Made by a program: the position numbers and the translations under genes
NCBI GenBank assembly: GCA_015178975.1
Contig: WHVD01000009.1
Location: 1-64,000 of the forward strand
DNA length: 64,000 bases
Reading direction: 5' to 3'
DNA from: Hysterangium stoloniferum
Taxonomy: Eukaryota > Basidiomycota > Agaricomycetes > Hysterangiales > Hysterangiaceae
Part shown: in pieces, positions 9,895-37,694 of the stretch
Layout: each line of letters begins with the position of its first letter
Numbering within the stretch: position 1 is the first letter of the stretch
Notes under the pieces: model-generated
Told to the model about the DNA's origin: nothing
The model's input: the letters and a program-made list of their open reading frames with translations, nothing else
Database searches by the model: none

Positions 9895-10035
9895 ATTGGC
9901 ATGGTGGCTTACATCCACCTTCTGCTGATCACCCCAAAAATGGACATATTAATCCCATAATCTTATATTCACGACGAATAAAAGCCAAAAGGCTGTGACT
10001 CGTCCTCTTCTCTTCTCAATGCATCCTAATTTACA
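9895..10035 (+). promoter_or_regulatory. Promoter segment D of an orphan family A copy
   Basis: This block is conserved upstream of every family A start in the window (also 29546-29714 and 33746-33910, and inverted at 25222-25365). It holds CCCAAAAATGGACATATTAA, a TATTCA block and a TATA-like GAATAAAA about 60 nt before the ATG. Conservation at all copies suggests the core promoter moves with the gene. The promoter role is inferred from position only. Confidence 0.6.
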
Positions 10036-11263: not shown

Positions 11264-11660
11264 AGATGTTGTGCTGCCGAAGTGAAGTTCGACTAAACCC
11301 CGTCGTTAAGTTGACTAAGAGACTATCGTGAGTTTTGTTTTGCTCAAGAAAATATAGTTAGAACAGGTATGTGTGAATGGACCAAACACTACAAAAGGTT
11401 GAGATTTTGGCTATCAGAGGAAAGTGAATAAGAAGGATGATCAAAACCCGAGATCCTTTACGTAGGATCGGAGAGAATCAACTTGTGGCGAAACTTGTCG
11501 GAGGAGCAAGTGCTTCAAGTCACGATATGTGATATACATTCGCTTTCTATATACACTGCGAAACGAGATGAGAAATACTTGATTGATCCTGCGAAAAGTA
11601 AGGGGAACCGAAGGTTAGCACCGGCCAGACGCAAAAAGATCTCAAACCACAACACCTTAT
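11264..11660. other. Intergenic DNA, no supported gene
   Basis: Lies between the MITE and the 3' end of the DUF6593-like gene. No recognisable frame or RNA gene was seen; the minus-strand frames here overlap the next gene's 3' region out of frame. Confidence 0.5.
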
Positions 11661-11668
11661 AATTCAAT

Positions 11669-12678: not shown

Positions 12679-12699
12679 GATGCTCGATCGTGGAAGAAT

Positions 12700-13499
12700 G
12701 AAAGTTCAGGATTGAGTTCAAGGATTGAGTTTATAAACAATCGATATCCACGCATCGACGACGTCATCGGTCCCCATCTTTGTTCGTTGTTGTTCGTTGA
12801 TCGCTATTATTCTCCCTATTGGTGCAGACAAGATGGTCCTTGTTGGAAAAACTGTTGCCATAGCTTTGTTAGCATACTTTCCCCATTCGGGACATCTCCG
12901 GATCCGGACTCCGGGAGTATATTTGATTAAGGCAATTAGTCCTGCACAGGCTGTGCTGCGTATGATACATCATCAGGAGTATTGGACACTCCTGCCGTTG
13001 TACTGTCAACGTAAAATTAGCTGAAGTCATAGTTGACGGCACGGGGAGCCAATCAGCATAGAAAGTCCTACGACTGCTTATAGGCTTTAAGCTTGACAAT
13101 TTCACTGGAAACATCAAGAAACCGAGTCTGAGCTCACATTAGTCTACTCTAATTCGCGTCCCGTAACAGCCGTCACGCGCCGCATCACACCTTTGCAAAG
13201 ATCCGGGTAATAAGCAATAGAACTCTTTGCCATGATAACGAAACTTGGGTTGAATAAAATTATCCAATGATACATGTATACGATTGTGGAGATGATGCAT
13301 TTGTAATGAGAGTGTGCCAGTGCAGACATGCCATGTGAGAAAAGACGAAGCAAAGCAATGTGAATTGTGAATTGGGAGCCTGGCCTGAGCAGGACTAACC
13401 GAGGACAACTCGGTGGGTTGAAACCCGATTTTGAAAAAAAGAAAAAGGAATCGACAGAGAGAGGAACGCTAATAAGCAACTACGGAGATGCGAAGCTAC
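12700..13499. other. Intergenic DNA between the DUF6593-like gene and TAO3
   Basis: Nothing with recognisable protein sequence was found. The last TAO3 exon ends at a TGA that is itself inside a consensus donor (GTGAGT, 13503-13498), so a small extra TAO3 exon could lie in this stretch; none could be identified. Confidence 0.4.
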
Positions 13500-16400: not shown

Positions 16401-19400
16401 CATCGAACAGCAGCGTCCGTTAAAGTCGGGTCATGCTCGTATGGATGTCTCAAAAGTGATGTTAATGCTTTCCTAAATATATAACTTTGACTTCAGTAAA
16501 TTAGCTACTGGCAGTGATTCGTGCTTACCTTCCGCTATCATTCACCGAGGTAGAGCTTGAGGCAAACATATCAATAATACGCTCCAAAAGTGAGTCTACT
16601 CTGAGTATCTCCATATGCTCTGGAGGGCCCATGTCTGTTGGAGATGTAGAGGTGTCCGAACAGAAAAATGCACCTTGCTATAAGAAAATACATGTGAGCC
16701 TGAGATAAAAAAAAAAATTGCAGAATGCATTGCTCACACATAAAGCAGCCATGGCGCCGTACGCAGCGCCAGCCAACGAAGCCAGATCAGCCTCAGCGCG
16801 ATTTCTAGCCTCCGCAGCATGTGGGACAGCATCACGCCGCTGCTTGTTCTCGGCCGGTCGTGCAAGTTGACACCATTCTTCACAAAGTCTATAAAGACCC
16901 AAGCGAATATTTCGTGAAATGAATCGATCCGAATCTTTGAGCGTGTTCATACGATCAAACACCTGTTCAACAACACCACAAAAATATCGTCGAAGGGCAT
17001 GCAAGTCACTGTCTCCTCGGTTGTCCGCTCTGACCAAAAAATTTCTAGTCTCTCGCACGAACGAGAGAAGGAGGTGCAATGAAGCATGATCACCTAATGA
17101 ACGAGGATCATGGACGAAATGTGCAGTTAACTGGTATATATGAGCGACCGATGCGTAAAGATGTTCTTGGCCTTGACCCCGCTGAACAATTTTACGGCCA
17201 TCGATGATATGCCGAGTCATTGGCTTTAGTTCCACTAATAACATTGCAAACACGCTCTGATGGATAGACCCAAACGCAGAGACTACATCATCTCGGAAGG
17301 TCGCATGCTCCGAGGCTAGAAAAGCAGTCAAATGTCGGAATAGCCCCTTTGCAGTGGAAAGTCTCTCCTGCTGAACTGCGAGATCGGACGCCGCTCTTGT
17401 ATGATCTCGTACAACTGGTGGTCGGCTATCTGAAGAGGTTGCGGCAGCACATAGAGCTCTGATCCAGAAGTGCCACTGCTCTATGGTTGCGGAACACTCC
17501 GCAACAGATTTTTCACGTTCCTGCAAACCAGCATATCCCGTTGAGACCGGTGAACGCCCCGTAATCCCAGCTAGCGCAGACATAAGGGAATGGTACCGAA
17601 CAACCGCCGCATTGAGAGTATCGCGCCACTTATCCACAACAAGAGGATGGTTGTCCGTGCAGAGTTTTATAAACGAAGGAAATACGAACCGCCAAAGACG
17701 ATTATCGACCTCTTTGTCGCTTTCGGCGAGTCGAAGGAAAGCGTCCGAAGAATGGTGCTCGCGCCAGAAAAGCAGCTGCTTGCGGTCGACTGCATGGAGA
17801 AGATGCCCCTTATCATCCAGGAAAAGGCGTCGCATGCCTTCTCCGTTGAGTATATCGATAATGTCTGGCATTCTCGGCCTTGAGCTAGCTTCATCGTCAT
17901 CTTGTACCTCTTTTTGAAGCAATGGGGTTACTAAAGGCAGTTGGCGAAGCACTTTGATCCCAGCCGTGCGAATCTGGCGCTGGTTATAGGTAAGTAGGAA
18001 CAAGGCACCAGCCTCCGTATTATGGAGTGCAGAACGTGCGCCAACCAACCATGCCAACTTCGAATCAGCGGCAGTGTCTAGGTCGGACACTGCCGTAATG
18101 CGTTGCACCCACATATCAATGACAGCATCCCACAGTCGCAGTATACCAGTACTCTCTACGAATAGACGTGTACCTCCGCCTTCACTCAGTAAATAGTACG
18201 ATCCGAAAAGGAAGCGATTAAACCGATTCAAAACATCTGTGACCCGCAGACCATCACTCGCGAACCGAAGCAGCGAGTGAGTTGCAGCGTCAGCAACAGC
18301 AGGTTCGACATGTATTAACCCACGGAACAGCATATCCAAGGGTTCCTGTACCGGCGACTTGTCATTGATACAACGTGGCCAAGAATCGAACACGGCGATC
18401 AATAGATCGATCTGCGAAGATGCGCTTCGAGGATATGCAACCTTTCCTTCCGGGTGGTGACGAACAATATGCGGTTCAGCCTCCTCCGTGAACAACTGCG
18501 GCCGATACGCCCATTTATCATCGAAAATAGACATGTAGCCCACCGTCTGTGAAAGAATTCTGGAAATAGTTGTTACGAGAGGAAGGAGTCGTTCCACAAA
18601 CGCTTCTACACCAGGCTTTGACAAAACAGTGTCTGGAAGCTTTTCGCCTGACACAGGCCAATCAGATGAGGTATCATTTAAGTAGCTGAAGTCGCTGCTT
18701 GACGGCCACGCTGGGTAACGCTTATCCTTCTCCATAGCGGTCAATGAGAGTAATATAGCTCTGAAACCAATCAGAGTTCGTTCCGGTGCAAGAGCTTCGA
18801 TGCTTATTGTCCGTTGCTTGCCAGACGTCAAGGTAGATTCTTGCATTAAACTGAGGGCGAGATCACAACCGTATTCAAAATGTCGTGAAATGATGAAATG
18901 CACGATGTGGAGTAGAGCCACCTCCGCATCATCATGGGGGAAGATGCCGAGGCGATTCGGGGGAAAGAAATGTTTTAAAAGACTATCCAACCGAGCGTGC
19001 GTCGTGGATACCGACTCCTGGCACCTGTACAAATATGTCCAGATCAAACGCATCATACCATTTAAGACGTATATTCGCATCGTTCTCTCCTGAGAAAAAA
19101 AAGTCAGCAAGTAAAGACAAAGAAATATTACAATGTCACCTTTAACTTGCTGACACAACTCTCAAAGCAGGCCACCCAGTGTTTCAAAAAGAACTCGTGC
19201 GGGGCAACACAAACACTTGTGACCACGAGGGGATACGCAGCATGCCAATAACGCGCTTTGGACATCATATCATGCGCTTTAGGATATATAGTTTCGATAG
19301 CTTTCGCCCAAGTCGGATGATTAACTTCATGTTGTGCCGTCTATGCATATCGATTAGATATGTTAAACAATACGAAGACGGGGGAAGCGATCCAACCTTT

Positions 19401-21399: not shown

Positions 21400-23325
21400 G
21401 GCAACAAGTAAAAGGGCCTAATGTAGAACACTGCGAACGGCCTGCAAGTGGTTTGAAGGACCGTGCTATAATAGCACTTGACTGGCTACTAAGAACCAAC
21501 CAACTGTTTCCGAGATCATTGATGACCCTTGTGGGTGCTCAAAGACATGCCATGTGCAGAATTCCTGGGCCGCCGTGTTGAACTCGTCCTAATAGCTCCA
21601 AATCAGAACAAATCCCGACACATGGAGTTTGATTAATATTTTCTATCAATTTGCATTCATTTGGAAACCCTCCCCCCCCCCTCCCGGGACACATTCAGAT
21701 ACTAGGCATTGCAATTTGCTAGAAAGACAATATTAATATGCTGTTCTCCTCCTCAACGGACCTGAAAAATGGAAGCCAGCCCTCGGGGAAATCTTTCCGA
21801 GTATTCTTGCTCTGGTCATAAGACATATTGGTTGATCCATTAAGCAGGATGTAAATGTTTTTGAGATATTGGGTTGGTACGAATATATATAAAGAGTGAT
21901 CTTAATTTCTCATTTGTCGACCTATTCTGCTCAATTTCGTCGTCGGTATTCGCCATTGTTTCATCGGAGCTGAGCGAAAGCCAACAAAAGATTTCAAACC
22001 TTCCATTTATTCAAATGTGTCAGAGGTGGCACTTCTTCTCTGCCAGTGTTGCCAACATGTCCAATTGATGACATACCAAGGTACAGTTTTGTCGCGTGTT
22101 GTTCCAGGATTTAGAGCCGGATAGGCCGAGTTCAGTTTTTCATTCATCCAATAATTGACGCCTCTGTGACATGCAGGTCTTTTTTGCACACATGCCGAGC
22201 TTGATTCTCCCCTGTAGTGCTACTATAAAATTTTATGACACTTTCATCCAACCGACGAATCGGAAATGTACAGCGTTATTGAGAATGAACCACGCAAAAT
22301 AATATCAAAAATAAAATTGGTATGTTGTCACAAAGTTGCGCGCCCAGGATCGTGGATGCGTTAGATGGGCTTGGCACCACACCAAGTATGATCCGGTTAT
22401 GCCCATGAGCAACCAAGGCACAAACAATACTAGGGAGGATTAACCATCAGTGTGTTTTCACGTTGTTCATATTGCAAAGGACAAGATCATTCATGAAAAA
22501 TTTGCTAGACTTGTATCAACGCATTCTCGGCATCCTTCAGCATCCCCTTTTGACTTCTCTAATGTCTCCTGTCTCAACTTGTCACCACGTCATCGCTGCT
22601 GTCTCTCGCTGGTGTCGCCCTTTATTCGCTCGCTATCTACTATTGTGTACTGCGCCTCAATGTTTATGAATCTCAAGCTACATTCCCGCATCTCATACAG
22701 CCAATCCACCTGCCAGCCGTGTCTCTCACCTCGTCTCCCGCTTTATCCCACGCTCGCCTCTTCAAGTTTCTGGCCCGTCTTCTACTTTTGGCGCCGCTTC
22801 ATTGGCTGCATCTCTTACCTGTCAGGTTCTCTCATAATGTCACTCCGGTCACTTTTTATCCTGCCTGCATCACTATATACAGTTTGATCAATGGGTGCTC
22901 TTTTCATGTCCTCGCAATGTCTTCGCGTTGTGTCGTTAGACTGGCCCAGTGCGATTCCTCATGCCACTTTCTGCTTTCTCTTTATCGTCTCAGTGTCTTC
23001 ATGGGTATGCCTTTGACTTTGGGCAGTGTGTGTGTTGACAGACCGTTACAATTACCATATAGATGTGAGTCTGGTTGGATGTGGTTATATGGTCGGCATG
23101 CGGAGAGGCTGGATGAGATTGTATGCCTATCGATAGAAACGGTTATGTGATGATATATGTGTCTCGCTATATCCATACGCAATAGATCGACATGATTCTA
23201 TATATATATAGGCAGTTTAAATTTTCATATGACCACGAGCTACCCAGACCAGAACGTCGAACGCGCTAGAAAGTCCATTATGTGATTCTATATAGTTCGA
23301 TTTGACAGTAGCGAGTTCTTACTGG
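21400..23325. other. Intergenic DNA upstream of TAO3
   Basis: Contains the TAO3 upstream region, a C-run (about 21671-21682), a diverged MLH1 remnant (entered separately) and a pyrimidine-rich stretch. The plus-strand frame at 22450-22887 is low-complexity Ser/Leu/Cys sequence without a domain, and I do not accept it as a gene. Confidence 0.5.
21921..22110 (-). pseudogene. Old, diverged MLH1 fragment
   Basis: Several blocks occur in the same order as in the intact MLH1 gene at 35336-35565: CTCAATTTCGTC(G/C)TCGGT, then GCGAAA(A/G)CC-ACAAA, then AATTGATG(A/C)CATA, then AAGGTACAGTTTTGTCGC. Spacing is similar but indels are frequent, so this copy is much older than those in the array that follows. 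Confidence 0.55.
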
Positions 23326-23329
23326 GGCT

Positions 23330-23935
23330 CAGTAAGGATTGTGAGTCCTTACTTTGTTAAGAGATGTTGCTGATGTTCTTTTCTGCACAAATTTCCGAAC
23401 GTGGATACTCAGATGCAGAACGTGAAGGTGGATCAGGAAAGTGGGAAGATCAGGAAGTATGCCGTCTATATTGTCTAGAGCCATCTAGGAGAGCTAACTA
23501 GCTCGGCTAGACTCGGCTAGACATTAGTCGGTATAAAAGCTTACTATAGATCTAGGGTGTCTAGGAAGGCTAGGGAGTCTAGATAGTGGGTGTAGACATT
23601 CCCAAATCCCTGATGTGGACAGGCCAAACCAACCTTTAGTCCCAAGGCACAGCGTTCAACTGCGCCCTAATCCTCAAGTGCCTATCAATCTCCCATTTCC
23701 TGGCCATCCCTGACACAATCACGGTGATGACAAGTGGGTTCCCTTCCAGTTCTTCTTTTTTCTACGTTTGTTGAATTGTTTCATGCAGTGCCCAGATGTT
23801 GCGATTTGTTCAGAATCCTGGACACACCCCTCAACAGGCGGGGTCAGACAGTTGTGAAGAGCTGTACAGATGGCAGTCAGACTACCTGGTGTATAAGGCT
23901 TCACAGCGGCAATGGGTCATGAGAATGGCATTGTA
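23330..23935 (+). pseudogene. Orphan family A, remnant A0 (exons 2-3)
   Basis: Matches the end of exon 1, intron, exon 2, intron and exon 3 of the intact A copies, including the CAGTAAGGATTG donor region and the closing CTACCTGGT(A/G)TATA. Exon 1 is missing. Exon 2 is split by a 182-bp insertion (23433-23614). The sequence after the stop, up to TTTTGGTCC, is shared with copy A3 at 30437-30535, so A0 and A3 descend from one duplication. Confidence 0.8.
23433..23614. mobile_element. Small insertion with a 5-bp target duplication
   Basis: GTGGA stands at 23428-23432 and again at 23615-23619, and the A0 exon 2 sequence resumes after it. The insert starts TCAGGAAAG and ends AATCCCTGAT, so TCAGG/CCTGA form a short terminal inverted repeat. 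Its interior is rich in CTAGA/CTAGG words. It could be a solo-LTR-like or a small DNA element. Confidence 0.55.
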
Positions 23936-24009
23936 AACTTAATTTGTACTATAACAGCATGCATACACAATAGTTTACATCACTGTTTTGGTCCTCACAA
24001 GTGTATATA

Positions 24010-24214
24010 TAAATGATGAATACAGATCCTCTTGCCCACTTTTTAGTCTCAAATACACGGCAGATTAACCCCTCATAACATTTTTCAGTCATGGAATAAC
24101 TTCCTCTGTTTTAGTCATTTTCGTCAAGGATACTTCATGGGTGAGTAGTACTCACCCACGACAGGCACTGAACCGACGTACCAGTGTGAACATATCATTC
24201 CTCCTTCTGTCAAT
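24010..24214. other. Spacer between A0 and the first MLH1 fragment
   Basis: No gene is seen. It contains a 10-bp perfect palindrome with a 1-nt centre (TGGGTGAGTA, G, TACTCACCCA) at 24138-24158. Confidence 0.5.
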
Positions 24215-24874
24215 AGTCTAGTCCTGGTCTGATGTGCGCACTTTGTTGTAAGAGTAGAGTTTCTTTTGAACAGACGGTGATGCGAATTGAGTATAAAACG
24301 ATTGATCGTTATCCACTGAACAACTTACACGGCTCCGCAACATCATTTTCGCTGATCGGACCCTCCTTCCTCTCCTTTGGCCGTTCCGTGTCCTCAAGGA
24401 CGCCACCAGTGAGTAGCGTCTAACAGGCATTAGCGGTGCTCTATGAGGTATATCAACACCCACACCTGATACTGAAACGTCCTGCTCCCGCTGTTGACAA
24501 CCAATGCCTCTTGGATAGCATCACATATTCTCTGCGTTATGATTTTCTCATCCAAAAAATGCACCTCTCGTTTCGTGGGATGAACATTAACATCGACAGC
24601 CTTTGGATCAAGATGCAGGCTGCGTCGAGCTTAGTACATTTATATTAGACACTGCAGCTCTCACCTCAGATATACGAAAGCACAAGTCCCCCTTGGCAAA
24701 ACACCACTGTATACTGCTTCAATGGCTTTCTTTATCCGCGGTGACTCCACGAGACGATCTGTCGACGTCCAATATGATGTCGCATGAAAGAAATCCTGAG
24801 GCACTTGAGAACGTACAATTGATGAAAAGCAAGAAGACCATCTTTTTTGTGTGATAATTAACATCAGTTGTGTA
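24215..24874 (-). pseudogene. MLH1 fragment B1
   Basis: Collinear and nearly identical with 35835-36490 of the intact MLH1 gene, same orientation. It covers the exons encoding the linker after the ATPase/transducer part, including the sequence for [17 protein letters not shown]. It lacks both gene ends and is cut at 24875, where a fold-back of family A exon 1 begins. It also differs from the intact copy by small indels. Confidence 0.9.
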
Positions 24875-25221
24875 CCTGTTCTCTCCTCAACTTATTCCAA
24901 TGGCACAACCTCCTCTACCAAATATTGCAAACATGAATGCTGCCGTCAATGGCATGACCGCTGGAAGAAAACACAATTGCTCAAGAGATGCAAACCTTCA
25001 CTGGCCACCAACAATCGCGTATAGTCGAGCTAGCGCGATTCCCAAATGTTGTAGTTTGGGAATCGCGCCAGCTCGACTACAAGCAAATGTTGGTAGTGAA
25101 GGTTTGGAGCCCTTGAGCAGTTGTGTTGCTTCCAGTGGTCATGCTGTTGACGGCTGCATTCATGTTTGCAATATTTGGCAAAGGAGGTTGTGCCATTGGA
25201 ATAAGTTGAGGAGAGAACAGG
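24875..25221. repeat. Fold-back of family A exon 1, arms about 170 bp
   Basis: The left arm (24875-25046) is the family A start region in plus orientation with ATG at 24900; the right arm (25055-25221) is the same sequence inverted. Only 8 nt (TGTTGTAG) separate them. The arms differ by a handful of bases. Copy A1 at 10325-10438 has an inverted repeat at the equivalent exon 1 position. The plus arm has an extra base after MTAG that shifts the frame, so no A protein is made here. Confidence 0.9.
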
Positions 25222-25365
25222 ACGAGTCGTAGTTTTCAAGCTTTTTATTCATAATCTGAATATACAATTTTGGGATTAATATGTCCATTTTTAGGACAAT
25301 CAGCGGCCCCAACCAACAGGTGGACTTAAGCCGGCAAACCGCATAGCAGCTGGAGAAGTAAGCTC
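25222..25365 (-). repeat. Promoter segment D, inverted copy
   Basis: Reverse complement of the D block that precedes the intact A genes, including TTTTTATTCATAATCTGAAT and the ATATGTCCATTTTT block. It ends in a short piece of MLH1 exon 1 (GCAGCTGGAGAAGTAAGC), after which MLH1 fragment B2 begins. The exon 1 piece shows how the 5' end of MLH1 was joined to D. Confidence 0.8.
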
Positions 25366-27390
25366 AGAGCATTACACTGACGGCGTTCTGTCACCTTCAA
25401 AATCGGGTCTCACTTCAGATCCAAAGCCCTGTGCGGGGAATAATGGTACTACAATTACTGTAAGTCTCTTTATATCCACTCATTCAATCTCATGGCTATT
25501 GAAAGGCCGAAGACCTCTTTCATTCAACACCGCTCCGACTGGCTGCCCTCAAGTCACCATCAGACGAGTATGCACGTATTCTAGATGTCATGACCCGATA
25601 CGCGATTCATAACCCTTCTGTATCGTTCGTATACAAGAAGGTGAGGATCTATTGGTGCCAGTGATGAGATACTGAATCCAGATGCAGGCTGGATCCACGT
25701 CGCCTGACCTATCCATACCCTCAGGGAGCGCTATCCAGCAGACAATTGATTTATTATATGGATCAAGTGTAGGAAAAGCTCTTCTTCATGTTTCTGCTAC
25801 TGGAACGCCGAAAGCGAAATCGAACTCGAAACCTGTCCGTGAACGAGCGGTGGCAACAAAAAAGGATCTTAAGGGAAAGGGCCGAGCAACGGAAGATGAC
25901 GAACTGGACCAACAGGAAGAGGAGGACGACAGTAATAGTTCCGAACAAAGACAGGACGATGCATTTTTGTGGGAGGCCGAGTCATACACAACTGATGTTA
26001 ATTATCACACAAAAAAGATGGTCTTCTTGCTTTTCATCAATCGTATGTTCTCAAGTGCCCCAGGATTTCTTTCATGTGACATCATATTGGACGTCGACAG
26101 ATCGTCTCGTGGAGTCACCGCGGATAAAGAAAGCCATTGAAGCAGTCTACAGTGGTGTTTTCCCAAAAGGGACTTGTCCTTTCGTATATCTAAGGTGAGA
26201 GCTGCGGTGTCTAATATAAACGTACTTGCTAAGTTCGACACAGCCTGCATCTTGATTTAAAAGCTGTCGATGTTAATGTCCATCCTACGAAACGAGAAGT
26301 GCATTTTTTGGATGAGGAAAACATAACGCAGTGAATATGTGATGCTATCCAAGAGGCATTGGTTGTCAACAGCGGGAGCAGGACGTTTCAGTATCAGGTG
26401 TGGGTGTTGATGTACCTCATAGATCATCGCTGATGCCTGCTAGACGTTGCTCACTGGTGGCGTCCTCGAGTACAAGGAACGGCCAAAGGAGAGGAAGGAG
26501 GGTCCGACTAGCGAAAATCATGTTGCGGAGCCGTGTAAGTTGTTCAGTGGATAACGATCAATCGTGTTATACTCAATTCGCATTAGCATCTGTTCAGAAG
26601 AATATCTACGCTTACAACAAAGTGCGCACATCAGGCCAGGACCGGACTATTGACACCATGTTTCCCGCGACGAATCCGGCACAAGCGACCATTAGCAAAT
26701 CTGATAAAGCCAGTAGAATGACGGATATTAAAGAATCTGATTGCGTACTTACCTCCGTTCGAACTTTGCGAGCAGATGTAGTGCGAGGACGACATGAGGG
26801 TATGGCTGACCGACTCGCTTTTTAGCCTATAATTGATCGTAATGCATATAACTAGGTCTAACCGAGATCCTGGAAAAAACATGTCTTCGTTGGGATCGTG
26901 GACTTGCACAAATGTCTTTCGCTGGTCTAACATGCAACAAAACTGTACCTTATCAATCATGATTCTCTAGCGTATGGCATCAATTTAACGTGTCGGGAAC
27001 AATTTGATAAATCATTGTCCTAGGGAGGAGTTGTTCTATCAGTTGGGATTACGACAATTTGGAAACTTGGTCGTTTTCGCCTAGATCCGCCTGCACCTAT
27101 GCGCACGATTATTTCATTGGCGGTGGAAGCCGAGGACGAAATTGAACAGAATGGGCTGGAAAAGGACAAAGTAATTGATGTATCTTTCTGCCATCCGTTG
27201 GGACGATGATTCAACTTACACCTATCCAGGCTATACTAGAAATACTTACATCACGACGTGAGATGCTCAACGAATATTTTTCGATGTCTATGAATGCCGA
27301 GGACGAGCTCGAAAGCTTGCCCCTTTTGCTACAGGATTATTCGCCAAACCTAGATAAACTCCCGCTTTTTCTCATGCGGCTGGCCCTCCT
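25366..27390 (+). pseudogene. MLH1 fragment B2 (inverted relative to the intact gene)
   Basis: Runs from the exon coding TDGVLSPSK through the C-terminal-domain exon coding LPLFLMRL, so it is the longest partial copy. The N-terminal ATPase motifs (the ENSLDAG and DNGCGI exons) and the final exon are missing. A nonsense codon (TGA at 26332-26334, after NITQ) breaks the frame; the same change occurs in B3 at 29043-29045 but not in B1, B4 or the intact gene. It ends at 27390 in inverted family C sequence. Confidence 0.92.
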
Positions 27391-27505
27391 CAGTAATGTT
27401 GTAGAGCTGCCATCGTCGAGACTACTGTCGACCACATCGCCACCAGCACGTTCTATGCGTATATACCGAATACCGTACTCGGGATGGTCAATTCTAACAG
27501 CTTGG
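27390..27505 (-). pseudogene. Orphan family C, short inverted fragment
   Basis: Encodes on the minus strand a remnant of YGIRYIRIERAGGDVVDSS, the conserved block of family C. It joins MLH1 fragment B2 at a TAATGTTG microhomology and meets the plus-strand C copy head to head at CTGGCCCGGCGTAT. Confidence 0.75.
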
Positions 27506-28470
27506 GACGAAACCATCTCTGGCCCGGCGTATCGCCAACGAATGGAGAGCATTTAGATATTGGAGTTACTTCGGAAGGAGAGATCTGGTGTCAATTACGA
27601 ATATTTCGCTAAAAATTGAACATCCTGAGTGCGGTATTCGGTATATACGTATAGAACGTGCTGGTGGTGATGTGGTCAACAGTAGTCTTGACAATAGCAA
27701 CTCTGCAGCATTATCAGATCCTTCAAGTTCTTTTATATCACGTGCGGCGAAAGACTCCGTCACTTCAAGTAAAAGTCTTTCCAGAAATGACAAGACAATT
27801 GAAAGAGCCATAGCCAAGAACATACGCCTTGTTGATATCGCCATTGCCGCTAAAATAGTGCATGACCACGACAAGAGGTATCAGGGTCTGAAAGGCCAAT
27901 GCTTCTGGTATTCAAACATGATTATGCGGATTCTAGAGAATCATTTCATAAATGCGGATGTCTATGGGAACTTCACAAACCTCCAGGTTCATGGACCTCT
28001 CCTTGGACAAGAGGACGCGTACGCACCAAACTGGAAAGCCAAAACACTCTCAAAGGAAGGCGGGAAAGCGTCCCATATCCCTATTTATACTCTTAGAAAG
28101 GCGGATGTCACGAAGTTGTCCGAGATTTTCAAAAAGGAGTTGAAGGATTGTGCGGAAAAGGTGTGATTTCTCCCCATTTTTCTACCTTATTGACCTAATT
28201 ATTGTATGTGTGTATAAGGTACAAGTTGCAGAGGCAGAGATTCAGGCAACGGCTGGTGTACGGGAGCAAGCGAAGCGGTTGCAGAAGAATATTGCGTTGG
28301 AAGATGAAATGGAGTATCCTGCAGATCCCATTAACATTGTATACTGAGAGGAATATCTTCGATGTAAAGCATTTTCTTGGGACGAAACCATCTCTGGCCC
28401 AGCGTATCGCCAGCAAATGGAGAGCATCAAGGTATTAGAGTTACTTCGGAGGAAGGAGAGATCTGGTGTC
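27505..28470 (+). pseudogene. Orphan family C, copy C1
   Basis: Encodes an Agaricomycete-type orphan protein with the blocks GIRYIRIERAGGDVV, KTIERAIAKNIRLVDIAIA, LKGQCFWYSNMIMRILENHF and, after an intron (28164-28218), EAEIQATAGVREQAKRL. I know similar Cys-Phe-Trp-containing proteins from mushroom-forming fungi, but no function is established. C1 is broken by stops at about 27555 (TAG in place of a sense codon) and 28347 (TGA where copy C2 has TGG). Its end passes directly into MLH1 fragment B3. Confidence 0.7.
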
Positions 28471-29545
28471 AAGCAGCCACGATCCCAACGAAGACATGTT
28501 TTTCCAGGATCTCGGTTAGACCTAGTTATATGCATTAAGATCAATTATAGGCTAAAAAGCGAGTCGGTCAGCCATACCCTCATGTCGCCCTCGCACTACA
28601 TCTGCTCGCAAATTTCGAACGGAGGTGAGTACGCAATCAGACTCTTTAATATCCTTCATTCTACTGGCTTTATCAGATTTGCTAATGGTCGCTTGTGCCG
28701 GATTCGTCGCGGGAAACATGGTGTCAATAGTCCGGTCCTGGTCTGATGTGTGCACTTTGTTGTAAGCGTAGATATTCTTCTGAACAGATGCTAATGCGAA
28801 TTGAGTATAACACGATTGATCGTTATCCACTGAACAACTTACCCGACTCCGCAACATGATTTTCGCTAGTCGGACCCTCCTTCCTCTCCTTTGGCCGTTC
28901 CTTGTACTCGAGGATGCCACCAGTGAGCAACGTCTAACAGGCATCAGCGATGATCTATGAGGTATATCAACACCCACACCTGATACTGAAACGTCCTGCT
29001 CCCGCTGTTGACAACCAATGCCTCTTGGATAGCATCACATATTCACTGCGTTATGTTTTCCTCATCCAAAAAATGCACTTCTCGTTTCGTAGGATGGACA
29101 TTAACATCGACAGCTTTTGTATCAAGAAGCAGGTTGCGTCGAACTTAGCAAGTACGTTTATATTAGACACCGCAGCTCTCACCTTAGATATACGAAAGGA
29201 CAAGTCCCTTTTGGGAAAACACCACTGTAGACTGCTTCAATGGGTTTCTTTATCCGCGGTGACTCCACGAGACGATCTGTCGACGTCCAATATGATGTCA
29301 CATGAAAGAAATCTTGAGGAACTTAAGAACATACGATTGATGAAAAGCAGGACCGTCTTTTTTTGTGATAATTAACATCAGTTGTGTATGACTCGGCCTC
29401 CCACAAAAACGCATCTTCTTGTCTTTGTTCGGAACTATTACTGTCGTCCTCCTCTTCCTCTTGATCCAGTTCGTCATCTTCCGTTGCTCGGCCCTTTCCC
29501 TTAGGATCCTTTTTTGTTGCCACCGCTCCGTCAGTGTAATGCTCT
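28471..29545 (-). pseudogene. MLH1 fragment B3
   Basis: Same orientation as the intact gene, collinear with about 35590-36640. It starts abruptly at CCACGATCCCAACG inside the exon coding IVDLHKC and ends in the acidic linker exon ([18 protein letters not shown]). It shares the nonsense TGA (29043-29045) with B2 and also has a small deletion near 29345. B2 and B3 are therefore an inverted duplicate pair with arms of about 1 kb. Confidence 0.9.
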
Positions 29546-29714
29546 GAGCTGACTTCTCCAGCTGCTATGTGGTTTGCCGGCTTAAGCCCACCTGTTGGTT
29601 GGGGCCGCTGATTGTCCCAAAAATGGACATATTAATTCCAAAATTGTATATTCAGATTATGAATAAAAAGCTTGAAAACTACGACTCGTCCTGTTCTCTC
29701 CTCAACTTATTCCA
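29546..29714 (+). promoter_or_regulatory. Promoter segment D upstream of A3
   Basis: Conserved upstream block of family A, with CCCAAAAATGGACATATTAA, TATTCAGATTATGAATAAAA (TATA-like) and TCCTGTTCTCTCCTCAAC just before the ATG. It begins with a scrap of MLH1 exon 1 (CTTCTCCAGCTGCTAT), marking a breakpoint. Confidence 0.6.
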
Positions 29715-30437
29715 ATGGCACAACCTCCTTTGCCACATATTGCAAACATGAATGCAGCCGTCAACGGCATGACCGCTGGAAGCAACACAATTGCTCAAGA
29801 GATGCAAACCTTCACTGGCCACCAGCAATCACTTGTCGTTGAGCTAGCCCAATTTCCAAACTACAACATGGATCACATACAACAACAACTCGCCGGCATT
29901 CAGGCCAGCATTGCCGCTATCCAGGCGATGCAAGCCAATGTCCAGGCGACGCTGGCCAATGTCCAAGCGACGCTGGCCAATGTCCAGGCAGACATACAGA
30001 CAGTGCAGGCGAGTGTGGGTGATTTGACAGCCTTAACTACTGCGCAGTAAGGATTGCAAGTCCTTACTTTGTTAGAAGATATCGCTGATATTCTTTGATG
30101 TACAGGTTTTGGAATATAGATGCTCGGATGCAGAACGCGGCGAAGGTAGACAGGCCCACCCAACGTTTAGTCCCATTGCGCAGCATTCAACGTGGTCCTA
30201 ATCCTCAAGTGCCTGTAAACACCGCAATACCAAATTTCCCAGCCAACGCTAATGCAATCACGGGAATGTCAAGTAGGTTCCTCTTCCAGTTCTTCCCCCT
30301 TTTTGCCGTTTGTTGAATTGCTTCATGCAGCGGTCGCATGTCGCAATTTGCTCAGAAGCCTGGGCAAAACCATCCCTCAAGGGGTCGCAAAGCAGCGAAC
30401 GGCTGTACGGAAGGCAGTTGGACTACCTGGTATATAG
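29715..30437 (+). CDS. Orphan family A protein A3, 201 aa, coiled coil
   Basis: Three exons (29715-30046, 30106-30272, 30331-30437) sum to 606 nt, whole codons, giving 201 residues. The N-terminus is MAQPPLPHIANMNAAVNGMT. Residues about 60-110 are a Gln/Ala-rich heptad array (repeats of QATLANV) predicted to form a coiled coil. A second region (SIQRGPNPQVPVNTAIPNFP) and the C-terminal motif RRAVGLPGI-like KAVGLPGI close the protein. No catalytic residues or signal peptide are seen. If the first intron is retained, translation stops at once (TAQ-stop). Similar short coiled-coil orphans are common in Agaricomycetes; the function is unknown. It lies downstream of fragment B3. Confidence 0.65.
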
Positions 30438-30527
30438 GTTTTACAGCGGCAATGGGTCATGAGAGTAGCATTGTAAACTTAATTTGTACTATAACAGCAT
30501 GCATACGCAATAGTTTACATCACTGTT

Positions 30528-30708
30528 TTGGTCCTTATCAACATCGCTTGACCAAAGCTTCCGGGTTGTCGTAATCCCAACTGATAGAACAACTCTTCCC
30601 TGGGACAATGATTTATCAAATTATTCCCGACACGTTAAATTGATGCCATACGATAGAGAACCATGATTGATAAGGTACAGTTTTGTCGCATGTTGGACCA
30701 GCGAAAGA
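30528..30708 (-). pseudogene. MLH1 fragment B4, 3' piece
   Basis: Begins with CCTTATCAACATCGCT, the end of the MLH1 coding sequence. It then jumps by deletion to the exon coding [11 protein letters not shown] and its intron, and ends inside the IVDLHKC exon at GAAAGACAC. There the C-family insert (30709-32228) begins. After the insert the same MLH1 exon resumes with CCACGATCCC, so this is the left part of one interrupted MLH1 copy. Confidence 0.8.
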
Positions 30709-31290
30709 CACAAACCACACCTTTTCCTCACAATCCTTCAACTGCTTTTTAAAAACATTGGACAACTCCTCGACATCCGCCTTTCTGAAAGTATAAATAG
30801 GGATATGGAACACTTGCCCCACCCTCGTCTGAGTGTTTCGGCATTCCAGTTTGGTGTGTATGCGTCCTTCTGTTCAAGGTCAGGTCCAAGACCTGGAGGT
30901 TTGTGAAGTTCCCATCCACATTGCTATTTATGAAATGATTCTCTAGAATTGGCATAATCATGTCCGAATACCAGAAGCATTGGCCTTTGAAAACCCGATA
31001 CCTCCCGTCGTAATTGTGGTCTATTTTAGCAGCAATGGTGATATCAACAAGGCGTATGTTCTTTGCTACAGCTCTTTCAATCATCTTGTCGTTGGTGGGA
31101 AGAGTTTCACTTGAAGTGATGTAGTCTTTTGCCATACAGGGTGTAAAAGAACTTGAAGGATCTGATAATGTTGTAGAGCTGCCATCACCAATACTACTGT
31201 CGACCACATCGCCACCAGCACATTCTATGCATATATACCGAATACCATACTCGGGATGATCAATTCTAACAGCTTGGGACGAAACCATCT
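30709..31290 (-). pseudogene. Orphan family C, inverted copy
   Basis: Minus-strand frame with the family C blocks YGIRYICIECAGGDVVDSS, RAVAKNIRLVDITIAAKI and KGQCFWYSDMIMPILENHF. It differs from copies C1 and C2 by many substitutions, so it is a separate, older paralogue. It faces C2 head to head and is fused at its 3' end to the cut MLH1 exon. Frameshifts follow the NFTNLQV block. Confidence 0.7.
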
Positions 31291-32228
31291 CTGGCCCGGC
31301 ATATCGCAGATATTGGAGTTACTTCGGAAGAAGGAGAGATCTGGTGTCAAGCACGAATATTTTGCTTTTAAAATTGACCATCCTGAGTGCGGTATTCGGT
31401 ATATACGTATAGAACGTGCTGGTGGTGGTCAACAGTAGTCTTGACAATAGCAGCTCTGCAGCATTATCAGATCCTTCGCGTTCTTTTATATCACGTGTGG
31501 CGAAAGACTCTGTCACTTCAAGTAAAAGTCTTCCCAGAAATGACAAGACAATCGAAAGAGCCATAGCCAAGAACATACGCCTTGTTGATATCGCCATTGC
31601 CACTAAAATAGTGCATGACCACGACGAGATGTATCAGGGTCTGAAAGGCCAATGCTTCTGGTATTCAAACATGATTATGCGGATTCTAGAGAATCATTTC
31701 ATAAATGCGGATGTCTATGGGAACTTCACAAACCTCCAGGTTCATGGACCTCTCCTTGAACAAGAGGACGCATATGCACCAAACTGGAAAGCCGAAACAC
31801 TCTCAAAGGAAGGCAGGAAGCGTCCCACATCCCTATTTATACTCTTAGAAAGGCGGATGTCACGAAGTTGTCCGAGATTTTCAAAAAGGAGTTGAAGGAT
31901 GGTGCGGAAAAGGTGTGATTTCTCCCCATTTTTCTACCTTATTGACCTAATTATTGTAGGTGTGTATAAGGTACAAGTTGCAGAGGCAGAGATTCAGGCA
32001 ACGGCTGGTGTACGGGAGCAAGCGAAGCGGTTGCAGAAGAATATTGCGTTGGAAGATGAAATGGAGTATCCTGCAGATCCCATTAACATTGTATACTGGG
32101 AGGAATATCTTCGATGTAAAGCATTTTCTTGGGACGAAACTATCTCTGGCCCAGCGTATCGCCAGCAAATGGAGAGCATCAAGGTATTAGAGTTACTTCG
32201 GAGGAAGGAGAGATCTGGTGTCAAGCAG
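31290..32228 (+). pseudogene. Orphan family C, copy C2
   Basis: Nearly identical to C1. A 5-nt loss in the RAGGDVV codons (about 31425) and a single-base loss near 31818 shift the frame, although the later Trp codon (INIVYWEEYLRCKAF) is intact here. The tail (KVLELLRRKERSGVKQ) repeats sequence found at the head of the copy, so C units overlap end to start. The copy ends in the split MLH1 exon. Confidence 0.7.
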
Positions 32229-33745
32229 CCACGATCCCAACGAAGACATGTTTTTCCAGGATCTCGGTTAGACCTAGTTATATGCATTAAGATCAATTAT
32301 AGGCTAAAAAGCGAGTCGGTCAGCCATACCCTCATGTCGTCCTCGCACTACATCTGCTCGCAAAGTTCGAACGGAGGTAAGTACGCAATCAGATTCTTTA
32401 ATATCCGTCATTCTACTGGCTTTATCAGATTTGCTAATGGTCGCTTGTGCCGGATTCGTCGCGGGAAACATGGTGTCAATAGTCCGGTCCTGGCCTGATG
32501 TGCGCACTTTGTTGTAAGAGTAGATTTTCTTTTGAACAGATGCTAATGCGAATTGAGTATAACGCGATTGATCGTTATCCACTGAACAACTTACTGACTC
32601 CGCAACATGATTTTCGCTAGTCGGACCCTCCTTCCTCTCCTTTGGCCGTTCCTTGTCCTCGAGGACGCCATCAGTGAGTAGCGTCTAACAGGCATCAGCG
32701 ATGCTCTATGAGGTATATCAACACCCACACCTGATACTGAAACGTCCTGCTCCCGCTGTTGACAACCAATGCCTCTTGGATAGCATCACATATTCTCTGC
32801 GTCATGATTTCCTCATCACCTCTCGTTTCGTAGGATGTACATTAACATCGACAGCTTTTGGATCAAGATGCAGGCTGCGTCGAGCTTAGCAAGTACCGTT
32901 TATATTGGACACCGCAGCTCTCACCTCAGATATACGAAAGGACAAGTCCCCTTTGGCAAAACACCATTGTATACTGCTTCAATGGCTTTCTTTATCCGCA
33001 GTGAGTCCACGAGACGATCTGTCGACGTCCAATATGATGTCACATGAAAGAAATCCTGGGGCACTTGAGAACATACGATTGATGAAAAGCAAGAAGACCA
33101 TCTTTTTTGTGTGATAATTAACATCAGTTGTGTATGACTCGGCCTCCCACAAAAATGCATCGTCCTGTCTTTGTTCGGAACTATTACTGTCGTCCTCCTC
33201 TTCCTCTTGATCCAGTTCGTCATCTTCCGTTGCTCGGCCCTTTCCCTTAAGATCCCTTTTTGTTGTCACCGCTCGTTCACGGACAGGTTTCGAGTTCGAT
33301 TTCGCTTTCGGCGTTCCAGTAGCAGAAATATCAAAAAGAGCTTTCCCTACACTTGAGCCATATAATAAACCCATTGCCTGCTGGATAGTGTTCCCTGAGG
33401 GTGTGGATAGATCAGGCGACGTGGATCCAGCCTGCATCTGGGTTCAGTATTTCAACACTGGCACCAACAGACCCTCACCTTCTTGCATACGAATGATACC
33501 GAAGGGTTATGAATCGCGTATCGGGTGATGACATCTAGAATACGTGCATACTCGTCTGACGGTGACTTGAGGGCAGCCAGACGGAGCGGTGTTGAATGAA
33601 AGAGGTCCTCGGCCTTTCAATAGCCATGAGATTGAATGAGTGGACATAAAGAGACTTACAGTAATTGTAGTACCATCATTCCCCGCACAGGGCTTTGGAT
33701 CTGGAGTAAGACTCGGTTTCGAAGGTGACAGAACGCCGTCAGTGT
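32229..33745 (-). pseudogene. MLH1 fragment B4, 5' piece
   Basis: Continues the interrupted MLH1 exon and runs through the linker to the exon coding [11 protein letters not shown], same orientation as the intact gene. Exons 2-3 with the ATPase motifs are deleted, and TDGVL is joined to a scrap of exon 1 and then to segment D. A 10-nt deletion near 32817 (loss of CAAAAAATGC relative to the intact gene) shifts the frame. A chimeric open frame that starts in D antisense (ATG at 33827) enters this copy. Confidence 0.9.
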
Positions 33746-33910
33746 AATACTTCTCCAGCTGGTATACGGTTTGCCGGCTTAAGTCCACTTGTTGATTAAG
33801 GCCGCCGATTGTCCCAAAAATGGACATATTAATCCCAAAATTGTATATTCAGATTATGAATAAGAAGCTTCAAAACTACGACTAGTCCTGTTTTCTCTCA
33901 ACTTATTCCA
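33746..33910 (+). promoter_or_regulatory. Promoter segment D upstream of A4
   Basis: Third plus-strand D copy, with CCCAAAAATGGACATATTAA and TATTCAGATTATGAATAAGA (TATA-like) before the A4 start. On the other strand it gives the start codon of the chimeric MLH1 frame, so it may act in both directions. Confidence 0.6.
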
Positions 33911-34656
33911 ATGGCACAACCTCCTTTGCCAAATATCGCAAACATGAATGCAGCCGTCAACGGCATGACCGTTGAAAGCAACACAATTGCTCAAGATCTC
34001 CAAACCTTCACTGGCCACCAGCAATCACTTGTCATTGAGCTAGCCCAATTCCCAAACTACAACATGGGACAAATACAACAACAACTCGCCGGCATTCAGG
34101 CCAGCATTGCCGCTATCCAGGCGATGCAGGCCAATATCCAAGCGACGCTGGCGAATTTCCAAACGACGCTGGCGAATTTCCAAGCGACGCAGGCGAATAT
34201 CCATGCAGACGTACAGATAGTGCAGGCGAGTGTGGGTAATTTGACAGCCTTAACTACTGCGCAGTAAGGATTGCGAGTCCTTACTTTGTTAGAAGATATC
34301 GCTGATATTCTTTTCTGTACAGGTTTTGGAATATAGATGCTCGGATGCAGAACGCGGCGAAGGTAGCCAGGCCCACCCAACGTTTAGTCCCATTGCGCAG
34401 CATTCAACGTGGTCCTAATCCTCAAGTGCCTGTAAACACCGCAATACCAAATTTCCCAGCCAACGCTAATGCAATCACGGGAATGACAAGTAGGTTCCTC
34501 TTCCAGTTCTTCCTTCTTTTTTCTACGTTTGTTGAATTGTTTCATGCAGCAGCCGAATGTCGCAATTTGCTCAGAAGCCTAGGCAAAACCATCCCTCAAG
34601 GGCTCACAAAGCTGCGAACGGCTGCACGGAGGGCAGTTGGACTACCTGGTATATAG
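33911..34656 (+). CDS. Orphan family A protein A4, 208 aa, coiled coil
   Basis: Exons 33911-34263, 34323-34489 and 34550-34656 total 627 nt, whole codons, 208 residues. It is collinear with A3 and exactly seven residues longer: the heptad array has one more unit (QTTLANF, QATQANI variants), so copies change length by heptad gain or loss. It ends in RRAVGLPGI. The gene is intact and lies tail to tail with the intact MLH1 gene, 136 bp apart. The role is unknown. It is a good candidate for the ancestral A neighbour of MLH1. Confidence 0.68.
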
Positions 34657-34792
34657 GGCTTTACAGTGGCAATGGGTCATGACAGTGGCATTGTAAAGTT
34701 AATTCGTATTAGAGAGATGAATATCAGGAACCAATTCAGTTTGCTAATGTATATTAGTTGAAAATACTCTCTATCATCTGTTTTAATCCTTA

Positions 34793-37694
34793 TCAACATC
34801 GCTCGAACACTTTGTACAGATCTGGAAGACTGGCTACTTGTACCACATCTCGTTCAAGTAGGCTTTTTGGCGCATTCAGATATTTGCGCATTGCTGGAAA
34901 GACAACATGCTGGATCTGCCACCTCTCTGACTTTTCAGAAGTCTGATCCTGATGATTGATGGAAGTAGGTAGCAGAGGGCCTGGAACATGGAAGAACGCA
35001 AGCTCTCGGAGAAATGTGTCGAAACATTCTCGCTCGTTTGTCCAATTGACCTACGTATCTCATTAGCGACAAGCAGCGCTTCAGGATATTACTCACCTGA
35101 GGACCCAGCCGCATGAGAAAAAGCGGCAGTTTATCTAGGTTTGGCGAATAATCCTGTAACAAAAGGGGCAAGCTTTCGAGCTCGTCCTCGGCATTCATAG
35201 ACATCGAAAAATATTCGTTGAGCATCTCACGTCGTGATGTAAGTATTTGTAGTATTGCCTGTATAGGTGTAAGTTGAATCATCGTCCCAACAGATGGTAG
35301 AAACATACATCAATTACTTTGTCCTTTTCCAGCCCATTCTGTTCAATTTCGTCCTCGGTTTCCACCGCCAATGAAATTAGCGTACGCATAGGTGCAGGCG
35401 GATCTAGGCGAAAACGACCAAAGTTTCCAAATTGTCGTAATCCCAACTGATAGAACAACTCCTCCCTGGGACAATGATTTATCAAATTGTTCCCGACACG
35501 TTAAATTGATGCCATACGCTAGAGAACCATGATTGATAAGGTACAGTTTTGTTGCATGTTGGACCAGCGAAAGACACTTGTGCAAGTCCACGATCCCAAC
35601 GAAGACATGTTTTTCCAGGATCTCGGTTAGACCTAGTTATATGCATTGCGATCAATTATACGCTAAAAAGCGACTCGGTCAGTCATACCCTCATGTCGCC
35701 CTCGTATTACATCTGCTCGCAAATTTCGAACGGAGGTAAGTATGCAATCAGACTCTTTAATATCCTTCATTCTACTGGCTTTATCAGATTTGCTAATGGT
35801 CGCTTGTGCCGGATTTGTCGTGGGAAACATTGAGTCAATAGTCCGGTCCTGGTCCGATGTGCGCACTTTGTTGTAAGAGTAGATTTTCTTTTGAACAGAT
35901 GCTAATGCGAATTGAGTATAACGCGATTGATCGTTATACACTGAACAACTTACACGGCTCTGCAATATCATTTTCGCTGATCGGACCCTCCTTCCTCTCC
36001 TTTGGCCGTTCCTTGTCCTCAAGGACGCCACCAGTGAGTAGCGTCTAACAGGCATCAGCGATGCTCTATGAGGTATATCAACACCCACACCTGATACTGA
36101 AACGTCCTGCTCCCGCTGTTAACAACCAATGCCTCTTGGATAGCATCACATATTCTCTGCGTTATGTTTTCCTCATCCAAAAAATGCACCTCTCGTTTCG
36201 TAGGATGGACATTAACATCGACAGCTTTTGGATCAAGATGCAGGCTGCGTCGAGCTTAGCAAGTACGTTTATATTAGACACCGCAGCTCTCACCTCAGAT
36301 ATACGAAAGGACAAGTCCCTTTTGGTAAAACACTACTGTATACTGCTTCAATGGCTTTCTTTATCCGCGGTGACTCCACGAGACGATCTGTCAACATCCA
36401 ATATGATGTCACATGAAAGAAATCCTGAGGCACTTGAGAACATACGATTGATGAAAAGCAAGAAGACCATCTTTTTTGTGTGATAATTAACATCAGTTGT
36501 GTATGACTCGGCCTCCCACAAAAATGCATCGTCCTGTCTTTGTTCGGAACTATTACTGTCGTCCTCCTCTTCCTCTTGATCCAGTTCGTTATCTTCCGTT
36601 GCTCGGCCCTTTCCCTTAAGATCCTTTTTTGTTGCCACCGCTCGTTCACGGACAGCTTTCGAGTTCGATTTCGCTTTCGGCGTTCCAGTAGCAGAAACAT
36701 GAAGAAGAGCTTTTCCTATACTTGATCCATATAATAAACCAATTGTCTGCTGGATGGCGCTCCCTGAGGGTGTAGATAGGTCAGGCGACGTGGATCCAAC
36801 CTGGATCTGGGTTCAGTATTTCATCACTGGCACCAACAGACCCTCACCTTCTTGCATACGAACGATACCGAAGGGTTATGAATCGCGTATCGGGTCATGA
36901 CATCTAGAATACGTGCATACTCGTCTGATGGTGACTTGAGGGCAGCCAGTCGGAGCGGTGTTGAATGAAAGAGGTCCTCGGCCTTTCAATAGCCATGAGA
37001 TTGAACTCGAATGGATATAAAGAGACTTACAGTAATTGTAGTACCATCATTCCCCGCACAGGGCTTTGGATCTGCAGTAAGACCCGGTTTCGAAGGTGAC
37101 AGAACGCCGTCCGTATAATGGGCTCTGGCTTGAATATTAGACCTTGGTTGAAAAAGTTTACACGAAACATACTTCCAAGCACAACTCTCTTCTCTGATCT
37201 TTGTTACAACACTCAGATGCGCGACATGTGAGATAGATGCCAACGCCTCGCCACGAAAGCCATAGGTTTGCAAGGACGACAAATCAGAAAATGTGGTCAA
37301 TTTTGACGTTGCAAATCTCGAAGCAAGAAGGGGTAAGTCGGCTTTCTACCAGCAAATAATGTTAGGAGGGTGTCATGAGCGAAATTGTCGCAAATACACG
37401 TATGCCACACCCGTTGTCTTGAATTTGAAGCAACTTGAGGCCGCCTTCTTTCACAGTGACCCGGATAGATGTAGACCCAGCATCCAATGAATTCTCGAGC
37501 AGTTCTTTAAGAGCTGATGCTGGGCGATGAATGATCTGGTTGAGACTTGGAATGAGACGTTTTATTAGAAAGTGTATGCATCCCAAGCTTACTTCTCCAG
37601 CTGCTATACGGTTTATGAGAGTCTCATCCAGACGACGAATAGGCAACGGTCCGGAACGAGTAGGGCTAGGCGAACGAGAATATCGAGAGTCCAT
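34793..37694 (-). CDS. MLH1: DNA mismatch repair protein MutL homologue 1
   Basis: MLH1 pairs with PMS1 (or MLH3) as MutL-alpha, which acts after MutS recognises a mismatch. Start ATG 37694 gives [17 protein letters not shown]. Conserved blocks follow in order: [25 protein letters not shown] (ATPase motif I), DNGCGI (motif II), [18 protein letters not shown] (motif III), [30 protein letters not shown], the [15 protein letters not shown] region and [17 protein letters not shown]. The end is [11 protein letters not shown], the near-universal MLH1 C-terminus. Short introns of about 50 bp were recognised at each boundary checked and frames join. A long acidic insert ([15 protein letters not shown]) lies in the linker. 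It is the only complete copy; at least five partial copies lie within 16 kb. Confidence 0.93.

What the first reader, a model, noticed from the sequence alone, without database searches (positions are those of the whole stretch)
23330..37694. Array of truncated MLH1 copies next to one intact MLH1
One complete MLH1 gene is accompanied by partial copies at 24215-24874, 25366-27390, 28471-29545 and 30528-33745 (interrupted), and an older scrap at 21921-22110. They mix with copies of two orphan families and of one promoter segment. The three orders A0-B1..B3, A3-B4 and A4-MLH1 suggest a tandemly repeated A-MLH1 pair later rearranged. The copies are nearly identical, so the process is recent. A mismatch-repair gene as substrate is notable, because copy conversion could switch repair on or off.
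Basis: seen in the sequence. Interest (0 to 1): 0.85.

Follow-up and report, generated by a model that had tools for sequence, protein, structure and literature searches.

The report
Dead copies crowding a repair gene
In what looks like a fungal genome, one intact MLH1 DNA-repair gene sits beside a patchwork of decayed partial copies of itself, in both orientations and partly repeated on a second contig; it resembles the pseudogene cluster of the human repair gene PMS2 and shows no clear sign of a working on/off switch.

Summary
The window (start of contig C544, 111-Mb genome, fungal by inference) holds one intact 14-exon MLH1 gene (34793-37694, minus) and five partial copies near the stated coordinates, mixed with pieces of two other genes (A, C). 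The "older scrap" is real and larger. Three things change the interpretation. (1) What was amplified was already damaged: at the five junctions examined exon 4 is fused to the end of exon 1, so exons 2-3 are missing. (2) The copies are not "nearly identical": they differ by 3-9%, keep introns, mutate evenly over codon positions, and 7 of 8 carry a frameshift, stop or lost splice site; older remnants show a long-running process. (3) A second array (C486:533986-540341) shares these junctions, and C57 holds an old A-MLH1 3' end. I read it as repeated DNA-level tandem and inverted duplication of an A-pseudoMLH1 unit, with exchange among dead copies. Conversion into the intact gene is not supported. 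Against certainty: part of the left flank has a 93-98% second copy on C64, so haplotype structure is unresolved. Closest known: human PMS2 and its pseudogenes. Boldest reading left open: inverted repeats making small RNAs against MLH1 (about 5%).

The parts
34793..37694 (-). Intact MLH1 gene, 14 exons, 754 aa; the only place where the genome search found MLH1 exons 1-3
   Evidence: splice model; PDB; Pfam; genome search
33749..34708 (+). A4: gene A (118-aa first frame) with its 5' segment, convergent with MLH1
32229..33748 (-). B4: MLH1 pseudogene fragment (exon 11 to exon 4), with 10-bp and 1-bp exonic deletions
31353..32228 (+). C3: piece of gene C, joined to MLH1 at the shared C::35588 junction
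30712..31307 (-). C2: inverted, more diverged piece of gene C (82-83% to C1 and C3)
30489..30711 (-). A-MLH1 intergenic piece with the MLH1 3' end, then B3.5 (MLH1 exons 11-12 at 30550-30711)
29552..30488 (+). A3: copy of A, 91% to A4
28477..29551 (-). B3: MLH1 pseudogene fragment (to 29528), then a short exon-4 stub and the exon-1 end joined to A3; 4-bp exonic deletion, stop, lost splice acceptor
27394..28476 (+). C1: piece of gene C; spacer of the MLH1 inverted repeat
25360..27393 (+). B2: longest MLH1 pseudogene fragment (exon 4 to exon 13), inverted relative to MLH1; 2 exonic frameshifts, 2 stops
25046..25359 (-). A2: inverted 5' part of A, joined to B2 through the exon1::exon4 junction J1
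24875..25046 (+). A1: 172-bp 5' piece of A
24208..24874 (-). B1: MLH1 pseudogene fragment (exons 10-6), stop and lost splice acceptor
23327..23995 (+). A0: older A copy (77-82% to A3 and A4) that still reaches the A-MLH1 intergenic; holds an inserted dispersed repeat at about 23429-23618
21785..22362 (-). Old MLH1 remnant: exons 13-11 and intron 1/exon 1/5' UTR

Best explanation
This is a pseudogene array. It arose by repeated DNA-level duplication of a unit made of gene A plus a copy of MLH1 already disabled by loss of exons 2-3 and of its own 5' region. Early copies were tandem. Exchange between copies, inversion, insertion of pieces of gene C and deletion then produced the patchwork, and an array with the same junctions stands at a second locus (C486). 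The copies decay neutrally and have exchanged sequence among themselves. The intact MLH1 alone can make the full protein; the array most likely has no function. Shown here: shared junctions, retained introns, lesions, even codon-position changes, mosaic tracts. Inferred: the order of events, the direction of copying between the two loci, and the recombination mechanism.
For: Junction J1 (exon 4 fused to the last bases of exon 1, then the A 5' segment) occurs at 25359/25360, 29551/29552, 33748/33749, C486:536956/7 and C486:534057/8; the exon-1 part is a 24-32-bp match. Junction MLH1 35097::C is at 27393/4 and C486:539773/2; junction C::MLH1 35588 is at 28476/7, 32228/9 and C486:538476/5. C486 reads K3(inverted)-C-K1-A-K2-A. 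Introns are retained. Copy singletons by codon position are 39/528, 50/530 and 49/530, with 42/432 in introns. Exonic frameshift indels occur in 6 of 8 fragments, in-frame stops in 4 of 8, any lesion in 7 of 8. B2 and B3 share a stop at 36156. Mosaic: B2 is mostly B3-like at 36341-35878 and B4-like at 35853-35699 (p 0.0012, best of 20 quartets). Identical runs: B2-B4 228 bp (p 0.0015), K2-K3 165 bp (p 0.001), among 24 pairs.
Against: Informative sites shared by subsets of sequences favour third positions and introns (11/528, 7/530, 23/530 and 20/432), so some changes seem to have arisen under constraint. Either the intact gene seeded or converted copies more than once, or allelic lineages contributed; one founding dead copy is too simple. 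Junctions show at most a few bases of homology by eye, so the recombination route is not identified. Part of the left flank has a 93-98% second copy on C64, so some allelic or duplicated sequence may be in the assembly. No reads, strains or relatives were available.
Confidence: 0.83

Rival explanations
1. Conversion reservoir or switch: recombination between array and intact MLH1 turns repair off and on.
For: Copies lie about 1-10 kb from the gene at about 95% identity; exchange among copies is detectable; INT-B4 has a 161-bp identical run (p 0.010), INT-B2 146 bp (p 0.026) and INT-K2 142 bp (p 0.025); site patterns hint at contributions from a constrained lineage.
Against: None of the INT runs passes correction for 24 pairs; the intact gene has no premature stop or lost splice site in the part examined (exon 4 to the end) and differs by at least 3.9% from each of the 8 copies; exons 1-3 have no full donor elsewhere in the genome search, so damage there could not be repaired from the arrays.
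Confidence: 0.05
2. Natural RNA-silencing locus: the inverted MLH1 arms (B2 against B3 or B4, around C) yield double-stranded RNA that lowers MLH1 expression.
For: Arms of about 1.05 kb at 96.7% and about 1.85 kb at 93.3%; 593 of 1037 distinct B2-arm 21-mers also occur in the B3 arm and 191 of these in the MLH1 coding sequence; 1023 of 2245 MLH1 coding 21-mers occur in one of the two arrays; Piwi and RNase III domains occur in the genome.
Against: No transcript or small-RNA data; arms are separated by 1.6 kb or more and the copies change neutrally, as if not maintained.
Confidence: 0.05
3. Assembly or haplotype artefact: copies are collapsed or misjoined alleles.
For: Repeat-rich region; ploidy of the assembly is not known; window 11645-14517 and 16884-17908 have a 93-98% second copy at C64:17769-21544, which could be an allele.
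Against: Same junctions on two contigs with private mutations; right flank single-copy apart from two short pieces; C64 stops matching at 17908 and its next 1.5 kb matches nothing in the window; older layers.
Confidence: 0.05

Closest known systems
Human PMS2 with PMS2CL and the other PMS2 pseudogenes on chromosome 7
   Same: A MutL-family repair gene with many partial pseudogenes, one from an inverted duplication with an internally deleted exon, and sequence exchange between copies (passages of PMC3398144).
   Different: There the gene is PMS2, the duplicon is 100 kb and 0.7 Mb away, and exchange reaches the functional gene; here the gene is MLH1, the array is compact and adjacent, and exchange into the functional gene is not shown.
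Soybean I locus (inverted-repeat CHS cluster)
   Same: Inverted repeats of gene copies related to intact target genes (abstracts seen in the listing).
   Different: There siRNA silencing is reported; here only the geometry is seen.
Bacterial mutL allele-conversion switch
   Same: A MutL-family gene proposed to toggle mutability (title and start of abstract of PMC2955026).
   Different: As I recall it, that switch works by short tandem repeats inside the gene; I did not read the paper, and no such mechanism was looked for here beyond the tandem-repeat scan, which lists no array inside the MLH1 gene.

Membership tests
MLH1 (intact gene) | N-terminal ATPase domain, transducer domain, Mlh1_C domain and FERC C-terminus (the FERC label is recalled) | tested here: met
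Unprocessed (duplicated) pseudogene | Introns retained, disabling lesions, no codon-position bias | tested here: met
   lesions in 7 of 8 fragments, none in the 162-bp B3.5
Processed (retro-) pseudogene | Introns absent, poly-A tail | tested here: not met
   introns align in the copies; poly-A was not looked for
Conversion-active gene/pseudogene pair such as PMS2/PMS2CL | Tracts exchanged between pseudogene and functional gene | tested here: inconclusive
   between dead copies yes; with the intact gene only nominal p values
RNA-silencing inverted-repeat locus such as soybean I | siRNAs from the repeat that lower the target mRNA | not testable with these tools
   only geometry and RNAi domains
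RIP- or MIP-type repeat mutation | Strong excess of C-to-T in a fixed context | tested here: not met
   25 of 79 C>T/G>A singletons at CpG, about 1.5-fold per site

The most novel reading that the evidence does not exclude
The inverted psiMLH1 arms around C are a natural small-RNA source that keeps MLH1 expression, and so the mutation rate, adjustable or heritably switchable without changing the MLH1 gene itself.
Probability: 0.05. Interest if true: 0.85.

Novelty: new member of a known kind. Interest (0 to 1): 0.38.

Why it matters
If only a decay product, it is a likely fungal counterpart of the human PMS2 pseudogene family: a repair gene whose neighbourhood has repeatedly broken and duplicated, leaving layers of different age. 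It also warns that automatic annotation may call several MLH1 genes here. If the repeats act on MLH1 through small RNAs or conversion, they would offer a testable case of a eukaryote tuning its mutation rate.

Tried and rejected
Rejected: retroposed copies (introns retained); RIP-like mutation; transposon capture of MLH1, since the dispersed repeats found at about 22406-23329, 23429-23618 and 34714-34780 sit at or inside array pieces and none of them frames the array as a unit (other repeats were not searched for). Simple allelic duplication of the whole locus is disfavoured by the right flank but not closed, because of C64. A plasmid-collection search gave no match and was not informative for a fungus. 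Gene A has no Pfam hit above a curated cut-off; gene C has none at E 0.01 or better. Papers: the listings showed no title about a fungal MLH1 pseudogene array; these papers were not opened, and the library is partial. Species and strain comparison was impossible: the tool says that no relatives are held.

They turned the C64 match, already, into an item against my reading, and I lowered the main confidence from 0.85 to 0.83 and raised the artefact rival from 0.03 to 0.05 for it. The silencing rival was set from 0.06 to 0.05 only to agree with the section on the most novel reading.
Full report
Setting. The window is C544:1-64000 of a 111.1-Mb, 554-contig genome. That it is a fungus, probably a basidiomycete, is my inference from gene content and short dense introns; no tool named it. 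Contig C544 is 1.51 Mb long and the window starts in sequence that looks copia-like to me (recalled likeness). The TTAGGG motif and its complement occur only singly in the window.

Observation. The intact gene has 14 exons, at 37694-34793 on the minus strand, and gives 754 aa (exon borders set by me). It matches human Mlh1 in the PDB (E 1.9e-111) and Pfam Mlh1_C, DNA_mis_repair, HATPase_c_3 and HATPase_c above cut-off. A six-frame search of the genome finds exons 1-3 only here; outside the two arrays the MLH1 protein hits only C301, at 48-49% identity, presumably another MutL homologue. Short DNA remnants of exon 1 remain at J1 and in the old scrap.

A second and a third locus. C486:533986-540341 carries three further MLH1 fragments, K1, K2 and K3, with A and C pieces. 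Read on its minus strand the order is K3(inverted)-C-K1-A-K2-A. The last A appears to continue at 528394-527212 beyond about 5.6 kb of other DNA; the two parts meet at A positions 33817 and 33830. C57:618497-618740 holds an A end, the A-MLH1 intergenic stretch and the last coding bases of MLH1. The copying is therefore not confined to the window.

What was copied. At the five places examined (three in the window, two on C486) the MLH1 fragment does not simply stop near 37119. Exon 4 is joined to the last bases of exon 1 (a 24-32-bp match within 37586-37614, E between 0.007 and 2.6e-5 in a small database), and this is joined to the 5' segment of A. Exons 2 and 3, which by recall hold the ATPase motifs, are absent there. 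The junction has two forms: at 33748/9 and C486:536956/7 it is 11 bases shorter than at the other three, and B4 and K1, which carry the short form, also share changes at 37084, 36929, 36896 and 36824. Two other junctions, MLH1 35097::C and C::MLH1 35588, are shared between window and C486. The simplest reading is amplification of an already disabled A-psiMLH1 unit. The old remnant at 21785-22362 differs: it keeps more of exon 1 and 5' UTR sequence, so it belongs to an earlier duplication.

Age and decay. The copies differ from the intact gene by 3.9-5.8% and from each other by 3.3-8.6% over the pairs with more than 100 shared sites. Singleton changes in copies fall evenly: 39/528, 50/530 and 49/530 at codon positions 1, 2 and 3, and 42/432 in introns. 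Of eight fragments, six have exonic frameshift indels, four have in-frame stops, and seven have at least one lesion; only the 162-bp B3.5 is clean. B2 and B3 share one stop, probably inherited from a dead parent. Older layers: A0 at 77-82% to A3 and A4; the C486:527-kb A at about 82%; C57 pieces at 72-87%; an A-like stretch at 9924-10135 at 71%; the old MLH1 scrap at 68-90% over 30-76-bp pieces. So the process is long-running, not one recent event.

A result against the simplest story: sites shared by subsets of sequences are biased to third positions and introns (11/528, 7/530, 23/530 and 20/432). This suggests that some of that variation arose in a constrained lineage, so the functional gene may have contributed sequence more than once.

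Exchange between copies. In the quartet INT, B2, B4, B3 the site patterns cluster (6 runs in 21 sites, p 0.0012; best of 20 quartets with INT): B2 is mostly B3-like at 36341-35878 and B4-like at 35853-35699. Three other quartets are nominal (p 0.022-0.037). Among the 24 pairs longer than 500 sites, identical runs pass correction in B2-B4 (228 bp) and K2-K3 (165 bp) only. Runs with the intact gene (INT-B4 161 bp, p 0.010; INT-B2 146 bp, p 0.026; INT-K2 142 bp, p 0.025) do not, nor do B3-B1 (p 0.0065) and B1-K1 (p 0.028). The permutation test ignores constraint on exons, which would itself lengthen runs with the intact gene.

Haplotype question. The right flank has only a 125-bp and an 85-bp match elsewhere. 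On the left, window 11645-14517 and 16884-17908 match C64:17769-21544 at 93-98%; 14518-16883 has no counterpart there, and the next 1.5 kb of C64 after the match finds nothing in the window. C64 may be an allele that differs in structure or a segmental duplication. I could not tell which.

Genes C and A. Relatives of C stand as four tandem open frames at C52:111-122 kb, 71-75% identical in protein; the search gave 54 matches, array pieces included. Gene A gave ten matches, seven of them in the window's array or the C486 A copies (57-100%, some very short); the other three are at 38-58%. Neither has a Pfam family above cut-off.

Silencing geometry. B2 and B3 form inverted arms (25845-26901 against 29528-28477, 96.7%), and A2 with B2 pairs with B4 and A4 (25046-26901 against 34065-32229, 93.3%). 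593 of 1037 distinct B2-arm 21-mers are also in B3, 191 of them in the MLH1 coding sequence; 1023 of 2245 coding 21-mers have an exact match in one of the arrays. The genome has Piwi- and RNase-III-domain matches above cut-off. This is permissive only; nothing shows expression.

Comparison. The best parallel is human PMS2, with 15 pseudogenes on one chromosome, one of them (PMS2CL) from an inverted duplication and lacking an internal exon, with reported exchange with the gene (passages of PMC3398144). The soybean I locus (listing and abstracts) shows what an inverted-repeat copy cluster can do. Paper listings showed no title on a fungal MLH1 case; the library is partial.

Verdict. Real, larger than described, and best explained as an unprocessed pseudogene array of long standing next to its parent gene. 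The regulatory readings remain possible but unsupported.

Noticed in passing
window 22406-23329: Fragment of a dispersed repeat (15 further places, 80-86% identical) that ends within a few bases of where A0 begins; the five copies viewed share a flank further left, so this one looks truncated.
   Followed up: partly
window 34714-34780: Short dispersed repeat between A4 and the MLH1 3' end, found at about 30 other places, often as back-to-back inverted halves; absent from the corresponding stretch at A0, A3 and C57.
   Followed up: partly
window 11645-14517 and 16884-17908; G000 C64:17769-21544 (part in L031): Partial second copy at 93-98% of the region left of the array, lacking 14518-16883; allele or segmental duplication not decided.
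   Followed up: partly
window 6330-6738 and 18831-19262: A direct repeat of about 430 bp at 81%; the second copy overlaps the 5' end of the MOR2-PAG1-like frame 16678-19158.
   Followed up: no
L022/L023: C486:528395-533985: About 5.6 kb of DNA with degenerate inverted repeats that seems to interrupt an A copy, sharing 97-98% stretches with window 1229-1535.
   Followed up: partly
G000 C101:343538-344706 and 355380-356542: Two sets of Piwi-domain matches about 12 kb apart with equal or close scores, possibly a duplicated gene.
   Followed up: no
L025: C486:555129-556068: Contig end made of a 70-bp tandem repeat.
   Followed up: no
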